Shown here piece after piece: positions 1,719 to 6,975 of a stretch of DNA of 64,000 bases; within the stretch, counting starts at the first letter, position 1; every line of letters begins with the position of its first letter. This stretch comes from Chthoniobacterales bacterium (GTDB lineage: Bacteria; Verrucomicrobiota; Verrucomicrobiia; Chthoniobacterales; UBA10450), in the NCBI GenBank assembly GCA_035274845.1, contig DATENU010000011.1, positions 248,001-312,000 of the forward strand, read 5' to 3'. The position numbers were made by a program, and so were the translations under genes. The notes beneath the pieces were generated by a model. It was given only the letters and a program-made list of their open reading frames with translations, did no database searches and was not told the DNA's origin.

Positions 1719-2402
1719 ATGAATGTTCTTGTCGTGGAAGATGATCCGCGCATTTCGGATGTATTGGAATATGCGCTCAAGGCCGAGGGCCATGAAGTGC
1801 GGACGGCGCAGCGTGGGCGGGAAGCGATTGAAATAGCGAAGCGCTCGTCTCCGGCCCTCATTGTCCTCGACGTCGGGCTTCCCGATATTGACGGTTTCGA
1901 GGTTTGCCGCACCGTCCGCAAGTATTCCGACGTGCCGATTATCTTTCTTACGTCGCGCAGCGATGAGATCGATCGCGTGGTAGGCCTCGAAATCGGTGGT
2001 GACGATTATGTGGTGAAGCCGTTTAGTCCGCGTGAGCTGCTGGCGCGGATCAAAGCGATCCGGCGACGCCACGAGCGCGCCGCGTCTCCGGCGGCGGAGA
2101 CGAAAAGCGAAAGCGAGTGGCGGTATGGCCCGATCACCATCGACCTGGAAAAATTTCGGGTCCGCTCCGGCGGGCGCGAAATTGTCCTGACGGCGCAGGA
2201 GTTCAAGCTCCTGGAACTGCTCGTCAAACATCCCGGCCGTGTCTTCACGCGCGAACAGGTGCTTAACCGCGCGTGGGGCGATGGAGGATTGGTGGCCGAT
2301 CGCACCATCGACGTTCACGTGAAGAGTCTGCGGAAGAAGTTTGGCAAATTCGAATTCATCGAAACGGTCCGCGGAATCGGCTACCGGGCACGGGAGCTTT
2401 AG
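1719..2402 (+). CDS. creB: OmpR-family response regulator, CreB-like
   Basis: A 227-residue response regulator. The receiver domain (about 1-118) shows the acidic pair EDD at 7-9, the phosphoacceptor aspartate D51 in VLDVGLPDIDG and the lysine of the VVKPFSP loop. The C-terminal half is an OmpR/PhoB winged helix, ending in a typical wing with TVRGIGYRAREL. I chose the ATG at 1719 over an upstream GTG because it places the first beta strand at the N-terminus. It ends directly before the kinase gene, and a CreD-like protein lies downstream; this arrangement matches creBCD of enterobacteria and supports the CreB assignment. Its likely target site is the four-repeat array at 3909-3946. Confidence 0.9.
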   Translation: MNVLVVEDDPRISDVLEYALKAEGHEVRTAQRGREAIEIAKRSSPALIVLDVGLPDIDGFEVCRTVRKYSDVPIIFLTSRSDEIDRVVGLEIGGDDYVVKPFSPRELLARIKAIRRRHERAASPAAETKSESEWRYGPITIDLEKFRVRSGGREIVLTAQEFKLLELLVKHPGRVFTREQVLNRAWGDGGLVADRTIDVHVKSLRKKFGKFEFIETVRGIGYRAREL

Positions 2403-3869
2403 ATGCGCCTGCCCGGTCTGCACAGTATTCACTGGAAGGTGTTCGTCTTTCACCTGGCGGTGTTGATCCTGCCGCTCGGTTACATTTCGTGGAAAGTGCG
2501 GTCGAGTATCGAGACGAGTTACCTCCACTCGACCGAGGAGGGAATGATCGATACCGCCGCGGTGGTCAGCGAATTGTACGCGCGCCTTCACGGGGAGTTC
2601 GGAGCTGATTCCGCGAAAGTAGCGGCGGAGCTGTCCCGGGTTTATTCGAACCTCAACGAGACTTACGAAATCAAGGCGCGGCTGTTCGACTTCACCCGGG
2701 CCGAGGTCGATACGCGACTGCTGGCATACGATTCCACTGGGCGTGTCCTTTTCGACACCAAAGGGGTCGCAACGAACCAGGATTTTTCGAAACTGGAGGA
2801 TGTTCGCCATGCCTTGAGCGGCCACTACGGCTCCCGCTGGGAACTCGATAAGCCGCATCAGCGGGTAAACATTTACAGCACTCTGCCGGTGTTCGTGGAC
2901 GGCAAAATTGTCGGCGCGGTCAGCGTTTCGAAATCGACCAACCGCATCCGGAATTTCATCTCGCGCTCGCTTGCGGGCTTCGTGCTGCCGGGGTTGATCG
3001 CGCTGATTCTGGCGACGGCGATGGCCTATGTCCTTTCGGCTTACATCACCCGGATCATCCGGGACTTGGCTTCGCGGGCGGAACGCGTGGCCGCCGGCGA
3101 AGGCAACGTGCGCCTGGAGACATGGACTCGGAGCGAGCTCGGCACCCTCGCGCGCGCAGTGGAGCGGATGCGGGAAAAGCTGGAAGGCAAAGCCTACGTC
3201 GAAGAAATGGCGACCAATCTTTCCCACGAATTGAAAACACCCCTGGCCGCGATCCGGGGCTCCGCAGAATTGCTGGAGGGGCCGGCGAGCAACGATCCGG
3301 CGGCGAGGGCGAAGTTCCTTACAAATATCCAAAGTGAGGTGGCGCGCCTCGATCGGATCGTAACCGAATTATTGAAGTTGTCGCGGATTGAGGCGCAGCC
3401 GGCGGCAACGGAAGTGGCGCCGATCGACGCCCGCCCGGTTGCCATGGAAATGGTGGAAATGTATCAGAGACGCGCCGCGGATTTTGGGCTGAAGTTCAAT
3501 GCGAAAATTCCTGAGGACGCGATGCCGGTGCGAGTCGCGGAGATGCAATTGAAACAACTGCTCACGAACCTGCTCGATAACGCGCTTCAATTCACCGCGG
3601 CCGGGCATGCCGTTCGATTCCGCGGCCGCCGCCGGGAGGGCGTTGTCGAATTCGAGGTCAGCGACGAAGGAGCGGGAATCGAACCGGAACTCCTGCCGAA
3701 GATTTTCGATCGCTTCTTCACCACGGCGAATCCACGCACTGGGAATCGCGGCACCGGCCTCGGACTGGCGATCGCGAAATCCATTGCGACCGCCAATGGC
3801 GGCCGGATTTCCGTCGAGAGTGAAATGGGTCGCGGCAGCACCTTTGCGGTGACGTTTCCAGCGGCCTAG
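2403..3869 (+). CDS. creC: Sensor histidine kinase, CreC-like
   Basis: A 488-residue membrane histidine kinase starting immediately after the creB stop. Order seen: first membrane segment about 14-33, a periplasmic sensor region to about 185, second membrane segment about 190-212, a HAMP-like linker, the dimerisation helix with phospho-accepting H275 in SHELKTPLAAIRG, and an ATPase domain with N box (LLTNLLDNALQF), DEGAGIEPE, and GTGLGLAIAKS. The N-terminal LIDTA-like stretch (MIDTAAVVSEL) and the H-box context match the CreC family. It should phosphorylate the neighbouring CreB. The inducing signal is unknown; in E. coli CreC responds to growth on glycolytic carbon in minimal medium. Confidence 0.9.
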   Translation: MRLPGLHSIHWKVFVFHLAVLILPLGYISWKVRSSIETSYLHSTEEGMIDTAAVVSELYARLHGEFGADSAKVAAELSRVYSNLNETYEIKARLFDFTRAEVDTRLLAYDSTGRVLFDTKGVATNQDFSKLEDVRHALSGHYGSRWELDKPHQRVNIYSTLPVFVDGKIVGAVSVSKSTNRIRNFISRSLAGFVLPGLIALILATAMAYVLSAYITRIIRDLASRAERVAAGEGNVRLETWTRSELGTLARAVERMREKLEGKAYVEEMATNLSHELKTPLAAIRGSAELLEGPASNDPAARAKFLTNIQSEVARLDRIVTELLKLSRIEAQPAATEVAPIDARPVAMEMVEMYQRRAADFGLKFNAKIPEDAMPVRVAEMQLKQLLTNLLDNALQFTAAGHAVRFRGRRREGVVEFEVSDEGAGIEPELLPKIFDRFFTTANPRTGNRGTGLGLAIAKSIATANGGRISVESEMGRGSTFAVTFPAA

Positions 3870-3908: not shown

Positions 3909-3946
3909 TTCATCGAAGTTTCACGCGAGCTTCATCAAGGCTTCAC
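3909..3946 (+). promoter_or_regulatory. Four-repeat Cre-tag-like operator before the 3969 gene
   Basis: Four pentamers sit in one array with identical 6-base spacers: TTCAT at 3909, TTCAC at 3920, TTCAT at 3931 and TTCAC at 3942. The period is exactly 11 bp, one helical turn, as in OmpR/PhoB-type sites. E. coli CreB is known to bind TTCAC-N6-TTCAC, so this array contains two overlapping tags in register and lies directly downstream of creBC. The last repeat ends 22 bases before the ATG at 3969, a position suited to activation. The period and sequence are seen directly; CreB binding is inferred. Confidence 0.8.
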
Positions 3947-3968
3947 AGTCCCGCGCGAATCTAGGGAC

Positions 3969-5630
3969 ATGGTTACAAAGATTCTTGCGCGGCTGGCCCT
4001 CCTGATGGCTGCAACGTGCGCTCTCGGCGCCCCAACCGCTCCGGTTCCCGATCTAAAAGCAGCCGAAGTCACCCTGCCGTATCCGGAATTGAAGGCGCTT
4101 TGGCAGGCGGCCCAACACGAGACGCCGGAAAGACGCAAACCGCCGGTGGAGTCGGCGCTTCTTTCCGCGCGTTATCAAGTTGCCCTGAAAGGCGAGGTCG
4201 CGGCCGGCGTCGTCGAATACGAGATCGAGAGCTTCACCGACGAATGGATCACGATCCCACTTCTCGGCGCGATAACCCAGGTCGACGAAGTCGAGCCTGT
4301 GGACGTGCAATTGATCGTCCGCGAAAACCATTACGCGCTCGTCACCAATCGGCCCGGGAAACAAAAGCTCCGTCTCAGGTTCGCCGTCAAACTCAATGGC
4401 GCGACCGAAGGCGCCCGCTTCGTCCTCGAAGCGGCGCCGGCTGCCATCAACACGCTCTCCGTCACCGGGCTTCCGGAAAAGCAGACGCTGCGCATTCCAG
4501 ATGCAACCCAGCTCTCCGCGGAGAAGGACCGCATCACCTACCGATTGCCCGCGCGGGAACGAATTGAATTCGAGCTCGTGCCGGAAAAGCCGGTGACGCC
4601 GCCCATCCTCAGCCGCTGGAATCTCGATGCGCAGGCTCTGGTCAGCTTTGCGGAGGGAAAGCTAAACTACGAGGGGCGTCTCGCCGCGAATACGGATAAC
4701 GGCTCCGGGTTAACGATGGAGCTGGAATTGCCGGCTGGGTTCGAGGTTACGAAAGTCACGGGCGCCGATCTTGATCATTGGCGGGTGAGCAAGGCGGAGA
4801 ACCAGGCGCGCCGGCTCCATTTGCGCTGGCAAACGCGCGACGTTCTGCGGCGCCAGGTGGAGATTGCATATGGTGCGCCGCAGTCGCTGACCGGGAAGGA
4901 ATGGAACTTGAAAGCGCCGCGTCTGCTCGATGGTGAAAACAATCCACCTCTCTTTGCGGTTGTAACGGAGCCCGGTCTCGAACTCTCTGGCACGGCCCAG
5001 GGTGCCGGGCCCCGTCAATTGCCCGCCTGGATGCTCAAGAAAGTGGAGGGAAAAACTTCGCTGATCGTCCTCGGCGACGCGCCGCTTGCGGCCAAATGGC
5101 TGCCGCTGGTGGAGACCGCGCAGGCGGTCGTGGAAACGGCGAACGCGAAGACGCGAATCGTTTCCGACGGAGCTTTGTTGACGGAAGTCGATTACAGCAT
5201 TCGTCACGAACGCGCGTTGCGCTGGAGCGTCGACCTTCCGGAAGGAAGCGAACTGCTGGCGGCGAAAATCGATGGTCAGCCGGTAAAACCGATTGATCGC
5301 GGAGAACGCGTCCTCGAGTTCGCCCTGCCCGCAGCAAAGCAGGTGAGTGCCGTGTCCCTCTCCTACACCGCGAAAAAGCCGGCGTTCAAACCCGTTTCCG
5401 GCCAGGTTGCGGTCGAGCTTCCGCAAACCGACCTGTTGGTGCACTGGCTCGATTGGGAGTTGCGAATCCCGGTCGCCTACGAGGTGGCGGCCTTCGAAGG
5501 GAACGTCGAATCCACGCCCTGCGATAAGACCGACGCGACCTCGCGCGCCATCCCGTTGCACAAGGAGCTTTGCAAAAACGAAAGACCGCGCGCCGAATTT
5601 TTCTACCAAAAACCGCACCCTAACAAATAA
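3969..5630 (+). CDS. Large secreted protein inserted between creC and creD
   Basis: A 553-residue protein with an N-terminal signal peptide (hydrophobic stretch about 7-20, then APTAPVPD). The rest is rich in short alternating polar/hydrophobic stretches typical of beta-sandwich domains, with no membrane segment and no recognised catalytic motif. Cysteines are few; two occur near the end (TPCDKTD and LCKNE). It lies 99 bp after creC, directly behind the Cre-tag-like array, and its TAA overlaps the ATG of a small basic peptide, so it heads a coupled three-gene unit ending in creD. I do not recognise the family. Inference: an exported product or sensor of the Cre response. Confidence 0.8.
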   Translation: MVTKILARLALLMAATCALGAPTAPVPDLKAAEVTLPYPELKALWQAAQHETPERRKPPVESALLSARYQVALKGEVAAGVVEYEIESFTDEWITIPLLGAITQVDEVEPVDVQLIVRENHYALVTNRPGKQKLRLRFAVKLNGATEGARFVLEAAPAAINTLSVTGLPEKQTLRIPDATQLSAEKDRITYRLPARERIEFELVPEKPVTPPILSRWNLDAQALVSFAEGKLNYEGRLAANTDNGSGLTMELELPAGFEVTKVTGADLDHWRVSKAENQARRLHLRWQTRDVLRRQVEIAYGAPQSLTGKEWNLKAPRLLDGENNPPLFAVVTEPGLELSGTAQGAGPRQLPAWMLKKVEGKTSLIVLGDAPLAAKWLPLVETAQAVVETANAKTRIVSDGALLTEVDYSIRHERALRWSVDLPEGSELLAAKIDGQPVKPIDRGERVLEFALPAAKQVSAVSLSYTAKKPAFKPVSGQVAVELPQTDLLVHWLDWELRIPVAYEVAAFEGNVESTPCDKTDATSRAIPLHKELCKNERPRAEFFYQKPHPNK

Positions 5631-5767
5631 TGACCATGAGACTGACCCATATCGAAAAACGGCTCGAGCGCCTGCTCGCCGGCCGATCCAAACGCAGCCG
5701 CCTTCGCGCCAGGTTCCGGCGGCCCGGAAAAAATTCACTCCGCAAGAGAAAGGCTAACCGCATATGA
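5630..5767 (+). CDS. 45-residue highly basic peptide coupled to creD
   Basis: A short open frame begins at an ATG that shares its A with the TAA of the preceding gene (TAATG) and ends at a TGA overlapping the creD start (ATGA). Of its 45 residues, 18 are Lys or Arg and only 2 are acidic. It begins MTMRLTHIEKRLERLL, which could form an amphipathic helix, and continues with basic clusters such as RSKRSRLRARFRR. Double overlap with both neighbours is strong evidence for translation and coupling. It might bind nucleic acid, acidic lipid or a partner protein, or serve only to couple translation. Function unknown. Confidence 0.6.
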   Translation: MTMRLTHIEKRLERLLAGRSKRSRLRARFRRPGKNSLRKRKANRI

Positions 5768-6975
5768 CATTCCCAAGACTTCTTGCCATCGGCTGTATCA
5801 TTGTCAGCACCGCGATCGGCTGGTTCATCCTCGGCACCAGCGTTGTCGTGCGCTCGGGTGGTTCGGTGGACAAGTGCAGCCCGGCTGTGACCGGCGGGTG
5901 GGGGCCCATCATGATCCAGCCGCATCCCGTGACGTATTATAACTCGCCGGGAAGCGCGGACGGCCGTCATCTGGTTCAGCCTTCGCAAAGCGATGTCTCG
6001 GTTGATTTGCGCTACGAACCGAAGAAAAAGGGGTTGCTTTGGTACCGCACCTACCTCGTCGATTTTCGCGGCGAATACAGTGTCCAGAATCCCACTCAGA
6101 TCACGCAAACGATCTATGTCCGCTTCGAGTTTCCCGCCGCGGAGGCAAGCTACAGCGACTTCTCTTTCACCATCGATGGCAAACCGGCCGCGGGAAATAA
6201 TAAGACCGCGGAAGGCATTACCGACGCGGTGACGCTGGCGCCCGGGGCAAGCGCGAAGTTCGTGGTCGCCTACAAGTCCCGGGGGACCGAGCGCTGGGGC
6301 TACACCTTTGGCAACAGTTCGCGAATCCAAAATTTCCGCCTCGGCATGACGACGGACTTTGCCGAGTTCGATTTTCCCGCCGGGACCGGATCGGCCACCG
6401 AGCGGACGCGGACCTCCCAAGGCTGGCATTTCGTCTGGTCGTATCCCGACGTGATCAATGCCCAGTCGATCGCGATGGGGATGCCGTCAGTGGCGAACCC
6501 GGGTCCGGTCGCGTCGCGAATGTCATTTTTCGCGCCAGTGTCGCTCCTCTTCTTTTTCGCGGTGCTGGTTCTGATGGGAATGGTCTGGCGGATCAGCCTC
6601 CACCCGATGAACTATTTCTTTCTCGCGGCCGGCTGCTTCGCCTTCCAGTTGCTCTTCGCCTATCTCGTGGACCTGGTTCCGCTGGCCCTGGCTTTCGGAG
6701 TTTCCGCTCTGGTGTCGCTTGTCCTGGTGAACGGCTACCTTTTCGCCGCCGCTGGACGCCGCTACGCGCAGCTTGGCGCGATCGCGCAATTCGCCTACAT
6801 GATCCTGTTCAGCTACAGCTTCTTTTTCGAAGGACTAACCGGCTTGACGATCACCATCGGCGCAATCGTGACCCTGGCGCTCCTGATGGCCGCAACGGCG
6901 AAAGTAAATTGGGCTGGCAAATTCGGTGCAAAGTCGAGCCCAGCGGTGTTCCCGCCGCCTATCCCGACCGCATGA
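5764..6975 (+). CDS. creD: CreD-like inner membrane protein
   Basis: A 403-residue protein with one N-terminal membrane segment (about 5-28), a large extracytoplasmic beta-rich domain to about 250, then five or six C-terminal membrane helices (about 262-390). The helical part contains LHPMNYF and ends near TAKVNW, which resemble the conserved HP(M/I)xY and closing region of the CreD family. In enterobacteria CreD is an inner-membrane protein under CreBC control that affects colicin tolerance and envelope state; its biochemistry is unclear. The first codons overlap the stop of the basic peptide. The position after creBC supports the assignment. Confidence 0.82.
   Translation: MTFPRLLAIGCIIVSTAIGWFILGTSVVVRSGGSVDKCSPAVTGGWGPIMIQPHPVTYYNSPGSADGRHLVQPSQSDVSVDLRYEPKKKGLLWYRTYLVDFRGEYSVQNPTQITQTIYVRFEFPAAEASYSDFSFTIDGKPAAGNNKTAEGITDAVTLAPGASAKFVVAYKSRGTERWGYTFGNSSRIQNFRLGMTTDFAEFDFPAGTGSATERTRTSQGWHFVWSYPDVINAQSIAMGMPSVANPGPVASRMSFFAPVSLLFFFAVLVLMGMVWRISLHPMNYFFLAAGCFAFQLLFAYLVDLVPLALAFGVSALVSLVLVNGYLFAAAGRRYAQLGAIAQFAYMILFSYSFFFEGLTGLTITIGAIVTLALLMAATAKVNWAGKFGAKSSPAVFPPPIPTA

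What the first reader, a model, noticed from the sequence alone, without database searches (positions are those of the whole stretch)
3909..3946. Four-repeat 11-bp operator that matches the Cre tag, directly behind creBC
TTCAT-N6-TTCAC-N6-TTCAT-N6-TTCAC is seen exactly, with no spacing error. The E. coli CreB site is TTCAC-N6-TTCAC. Finding it doubled, next to a CreBC homologue in a distant phylum, suggests that site and regulator have been conserved together. It also predicts which gene CreB controls here: the unknown secreted protein at 3969.
Basis: partly seen in the sequence, partly recalled or inferred. Interest (0 to 1): 0.72.

Follow-up and report, generated by a model that had tools for sequence, protein, structure and literature searches.

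The report
Four-part Cre operator before an envelope operon
A DNA switch made of four evenly spaced copies of a five-letter word, known in shorter form from E. coli, lies just in front of a cell-envelope gene pair in a distant bacterial phylum; the same switch recurs with its regulator across that phylum, so this gene control is old and keeps a fixed layout.

Summary
TTCAT-N6-TTCAC-N6-TTCAT-N6-TTCAC lies at 3909-3946, 39 bp behind a creC-type kinase gene. It is the only perfect 4-unit array in the 4.5-Mb genome. The only other one within 1 mismatch lies behind the genome's canonical CreC.

All 15 X-creD' operons found in the phylum sample carry an array upstream, and all 15 genomes have CreC (p 9e-14). 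In two sister species the array is conserved while the rest of the gap is not alignable.

(1) The target is an operon: X (3969), a mini-ORF and a CreD-like gene (5764). (2) Cre-linked arrays are phased to a -10 element exactly 10 bp downstream (YANNNT; 32 of 36). Here it is GAATCT at 3957-3962, so the mRNA is probably leaderless. (3) Seven of nine proteobacterial creD promoters read, E. coli's included, show the same layout with degenerate units, and two Burkholderia fit with a fifth unit. The published TTCAC-N6-TTCAC tag looks like half of the element.

Caveats: the window pair is a diverged CreBC paralogue just below curated cut-offs; other OmpR/PhoB-family regulators may use similar arrays; binding is untested.

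The parts
1719..2402 (+). creB-type OmpR/PhoB-family response regulator gene; proposed regulator of the array
   Evidence: Best NCBIfam model CreB (NF008296) 259 bits, cut-off 273; Response_reg + Trans_reg_C; 48% identical to CreB on C20 and 43% to E. coli CreB, with the same DRT(I/V)DxH(V/I)KxLRxK stretch
2403..3869 (+). creC-type sensor kinase gene
   Evidence: Best NCBIfam model CreC (NF008312) 344 bits, cut-off 356; its best hits elsewhere in the phylum are almost all CreC genes
3909..3946 (+). four-unit operator TTCAT/TTCAC/TTCAT/TTCAC, 11-bp register
3957..3962 (+). predicted -10 element GAATCT, 10 bp after the array
   Evidence: A at +12 and T at +16 in 32 of 36 distinct Cre-linked arrays; 0-5 of 36 at other offsets
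3969..3969 (+). predicted transcription start = A of the ATG (leaderless mRNA), inferred
   Evidence: ATG at +23 after the array in 12 of 36; 22 bp also at C20
3969..5630 (+). gene X: 553-aa protein with a putative signal peptide, predicted all-beta multi-domain; no Pfam or NCBIfam family
5630..5767 (+). 45-codon basic mini-ORF, overlapping X (TAATG) and creD' (ATGA)
   Evidence: conserved in both sister species with X
5764..6975 (+). creD': CreD-domain inner-membrane protein gene, 403 aa
   Evidence: PF06123 28.4 bits over cut-off 23; 41-81% identical to creD' behind X elsewhere

Best explanation
The array is the operator-promoter of the X-miniORF-creD' operon. A phosphorylated CreB-type regulator, most likely the product of 1719, binds it as two head-to-tail dimers on four 11-bp half-sites that end 10 bp upstream of the -10 (GAATCT, 3957-3962). 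It recruits RNA polymerase in place of a -35 element, as PhoB does at a pho box. Transcription probably starts at or next to the ATG at 3969. Shown here: the array, its conservation, its co-occurrence with CreC and creD genes, and its fixed distance to a -10-like hexamer. Inferred: binding, activation, dimer number, leaderless start, and that 1719 rather than the second CreB is the main regulator. The operon probably serves an envelope-stress response, by analogy with CreBC/CreD in Proteobacteria.
For: (1) Both near-perfect arrays in the genome lie right behind its two creC-type kinases, out of 43 kinase candidates. (2) A pattern-only scan of 388 phylum genomes hits 41; 29 have CreC, against 57 of 376 overall (odds ratio 26, p 2.5e-18). 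(3) 15 of 15 X-creD' operons have an array score of 16-20 upstream (shuffled mean about 12, maxima 13-15) and all lie in CreC genomes (p 9e-14). (4) In G002 and G005 the array is kept while the rest of the gap is not alignable, and there the window-type pair is the only CreC-type pair found; G006 has only the C20 type, with array and VIT gene. (5) The -10 phasing was not used to find the arrays, yet 32 of 36 show it. (6) Recognition stretch close to E. coli CreB. (7) E. coli, Klebsiella, Aeromonas, Vibrio and Xanthomonas creD promoters show four such units and a -10 ten bp on; Burkholderia fits with a fifth unit.
Against: No binding or expression data. The pair is below the curated CreB/CreC cut-offs. 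The genome's full-length creD on C17 has no array (score 12, background), and only 10 of 29 full-length creD loci scanned have one. Several CreC loci show no array within 500 bp downstream. Similar arrays with a -10 occur in Firmicutes and Planctomycetes without Cre genes. GAATCT is a weak -10.
Confidence: 0.85

Rival explanations
1. The array is used mainly by the canonical CreB on C20, and the adjacent pair has other targets or only cross-talks.
For: The C20 pair is the better CreBC (337 and 599 bits), and in other genomes X-creD' occurs with canonical CreBC.
Confidence: 0.1
2. Another OmpR/PhoB-family regulator (for example a PhoB) binds; the Cre resemblance is a shared family motif.
For: Pho boxes are also 11-bp repeats with a TCAY core (own knowledge); arrays with the same geometry occur without Cre genes in other phyla.
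Against: Both arrays of the genome sit behind the two CreC-type genes; strong co-occurrence with CreC; none of the four units reads TGTCA.
Confidence: 0.06
3. The regulator represses rather than activates from this site.
For: Position alone does not fix the sign of regulation; no tool result speaks for repression.
Against: A 10-bp distance to the -10 and no sigma-70-like -35 fit class II activation; creD is activated by CreBC in Proteobacteria (PMC4689548, PMC2654508).
Confidence: 0.08
4. A chance or neutral tandem repeat.
For: None beyond its being repetitive; simple TTCAY repeats do occur (G218).
Against: Conserved in register before homologous operons across the phylum, with diverse spacers and a fixed -10 distance.
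Confidence: 0.01

Closest known systems
cre/blr tag of E. coli, Aeromonas and Stenotrophomonas (TTCACN6TTCAC upstream of creD; PMC4689548)
   Same: Same half-site, same 6-bp spacer, between creC and the next operon, ahead of a creD-type gene
   Different: Four units instead of the two in the published definition; target operon starts with X; probable leaderless start; other phylum
CreBC-CreD system
   Same: Gene order regulator, kinase, site, CreD-domain gene; best family models are CreB, CreC and CreD
   Different: Regulator and kinase are diverged paralogues under curated cut-offs; CreD' is a short variant matching only the C-terminal membrane part of PF06123; X inserted
PhoB pho box
   Same: 11-bp direct repeats ending about 10 bp before a -10 (own knowledge for the pho box)
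   Different: TTCAY instead of TGTCA core; different regulator subfamily

Membership tests
cre/blr tag | TTCAC-N6-TTCAC or close variant | tested here: met
   TTCAY-N6 x4 at 3909-3946; T for C at position 5 of units 1 and 3 is a variant also common elsewhere
cre/blr tag | upstream of a creD-type gene or operon | tested here: met
   creD' at 5764 is third in the operon behind X, PF06123 over cut-off
cre/blr tag | bound by phosphorylated CreB | not testable with these tools
   needs a footprint or gel shift
CreB (NF008296) | score over the curated cut-off 273 | tested here: not met
   259.2 bits, but best of 105 families
CreC (NF008312) | score over the curated cut-off 356 | tested here: not met
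   344.4 bits, best of 88 families
CreD (PF06123) | score over Pfam gathering cut-off | tested here: met
   28.4 over 23, C-terminal part only, residues 252-383
CreD equivalog (NF008712) | score over cut-off 275 | tested here: not met
   29.6 bits
PhoB (TIGR02154) and pho box | PhoB score over 296 and TGTCA core | tested here: not met
   221 bits; the units read TTCAT/TTCAC

The most novel reading that the evidence does not exclude
The Cre operator is generally a four-unit (sometimes five-unit), two-dimer element rigidly phased 10 bp from the -10 across at least two phyla, so the textbook two-unit cre tag describes only half of it. In Verrucomicrobiota (phylum inferred) it drives leaderless envelope operons (X-creD', VIT-exosortase) not described for the Proteobacterial Cre regulon.
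Probability: 0.55. Interest if true: 0.65.

Novelty: new variant of a known kind. Interest (0 to 1): 0.58.

Why it matters
It gives a sequence-level definition of the Cre regulon outside Proteobacteria, joins an unannotated secreted protein family (X) and VIT-exosortase operons to CreBC/CreD, and suggests that the operator in E. coli and other bacteria with CreBC is longer than the published tag. That can be tested directly by mutating units 3 and 4 of the E. coli creD promoter.

Tried and rejected
Single TTCAY-N6-TTCAY dyads as regulon members: 37 in the genome against 11 reversed controls; requiring an ATG 20-24 bp on left 3 against 2 controls, so no further members are claimed. The global exact-pattern scan is dominated by low-GC and simple-repeat matches; only a few are Cre-linked. 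The C9 array-like site has neither a Cre neighbour nor the -10. Sequence search of X against the PDB found nothing; fold searches matched single beta domains to M1 aminopeptidase N-terminal domains (Z about 14, rmsd about 3, 150-160 residues) and Ost1/ribophorin-type domains (Z about 16 over two domains but rmsd about 22), which gives no function.

Full report
What was claimed and what is there. It is there exactly. Three of the four TTCAY-N6-TTCAY matches in the window belong to it, against 0.27 expected. No other non-overlapping place in the window scores above 15 of 20.

Gene neighbourhood. The order is creB-type regulator (1719-2402), creC-type kinase (2403-3869), the array, X (3969-5630), a 45-codon mini-ORF (5630-5767) and a CreD-domain gene (5764-6975). 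The regulator and kinase match CreB and CreC best of all NCBIfam models but fall about 5% and 3% short of the curated cut-offs. CreD' passes Pfam's cut-off but matches only the C-terminal membrane part of the family. X matches no family.

A second Cre locus in the same genome. Contig C20 carries a pair over the cut-offs (CreB 337, CreC 599 bits). Directly behind it are TTCAC-N6-TTCAC-N6-TTCAA-N6-TTCAC and, 22 bp further, the ATG of a VIT/vWA protein (TIGR03788-like, below cut-off), then an exosortase with XrtQ as best model. These are the only two 4-unit arrays in the genome at up to one mismatch.

Conservation in the genus. X occurs in 3 of 8 genomes. In the two sister species the array region is conserved (two variable positions within the 38 bp) while the rest of the gap is not alignable. 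So array and regulator come and go together, although G005 is only 88% complete.

Conservation in the phylum. A scan by pattern alone hit 41 of 388 genomes, while the reversed pattern hit only a handful. 29 of the 41 have a CreC, against 57 of 376 overall (Fisher p 2.5e-18; the two samples differ slightly). Many arrays lie behind creC or before creD, creD', VIT or X genes. Of 29 full-length creD loci scanned, 10 have an array score of 18-20 and the rest stay at background, 11-14. All 15 X-creD' operons have one; for G369 the array is seen on the longer stretch L076.

Promoter geometry. In 36 distinct Cre-linked arrays, A at +12 and T at +16 after the last unit occur together in 32; other offsets give 0-5. 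This is a -10 hexamer (YANNNT) 10 bp downstream. The arrays were chosen without regard to it. In 12 of 36 the ATG begins at +23, where transcription would start, so leaderless mRNA is likely there, the window included; others have a longer leader and a ribosome site. No sigma-70-like promoter with a -35 was found, as expected for an activator-dependent promoter.

Proteobacteria. The E. coli creC-creD gap reads TTCAC-N6-TTCAC-N5-TTCAA-N6-CCCAC, then 10 bp, then TATCCT (read by eye; the script's top-scoring register for E. coli differed). Klebsiella (TATTGT) and Aeromonas (CACACT) have the same 6-5-6 spacing; three Vibrio use TCCAY; Xanthomonas has TTCAC/TTCAA/CTCAA/CCCAC. All have a -10-like hexamer 10 bp on. 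In the two Burkholderia the scored four-unit register is not followed by a -10, but a fifth TTCAC 11 bp further is, by CATGCT; this was read by eye. A Persicobacter creD without creBC has none. The published tag (PMC4689548) covers the first two units. I could not read the original E. coli papers, so whether the longer form was noted there is unknown.

Mechanism. Most likely two regulator dimers on four half-sites activate from a position that replaces the -35. [quoted passage not shown] X is predicted to be made of beta-sandwich domains (mean pLDDT 81, pTM 0.37) with domain-level likeness to M1 aminopeptidase N-terminal domains; no catalytic part is seen.

Limits. The motif is not exclusive to CreB: Firmicutes and Planctomycetes contigs show arrays with a -10 but no Cre genes. 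Full-length creD on C17 of this genome has no array. Several CreC loci have no array close behind them. Which of the two CreB-type proteins acts on the window's array is inferred. Nothing was measured.

Noticed in passing
L042:3019-8503 (G000:C20): Canonical creBC followed by an array, a VIT/vWA protein ending in a PEP-CTERM-like tail, an exosortase (XrtQ best model, below cut-off) and a further protein; VIT plus exosortase genes recur behind arrays in several genomes.
   Followed up: partly
window 5630-5767: 45-codon basic mini-ORF between X and creD', overlapping both, conserved in two sister species.
   Followed up: partly
G302:C165, G241:C127, G168:C37 and many others: Proteins in open frames of roughly 1,100-2,600 aa carry copies of X-like domains, often two or three per protein.
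   Followed up: no
L352, L353, L357: Vibrio creD promoters use TCCAY instead of TTCAY in all four units, suggesting a shifted CreB specificity there.
   Followed up: partly
L158, L160, L162, L185, L193: Firmicutes, Planctomycetes and other contigs with four-unit TTCAY arrays and a -10 about 10 bp on, in L162 and L185 right behind another regulator-kinase pair.
   Followed up: no
L280 (G298:C18): An array lies about 1 kb upstream of creC, suggesting autoregulation of creBC in that genome.
   Followed up: no
L085, L086, L097, L101: Arrays with the -10 in front of other predicted genes: further candidate members of the regulon.
   Followed up: no
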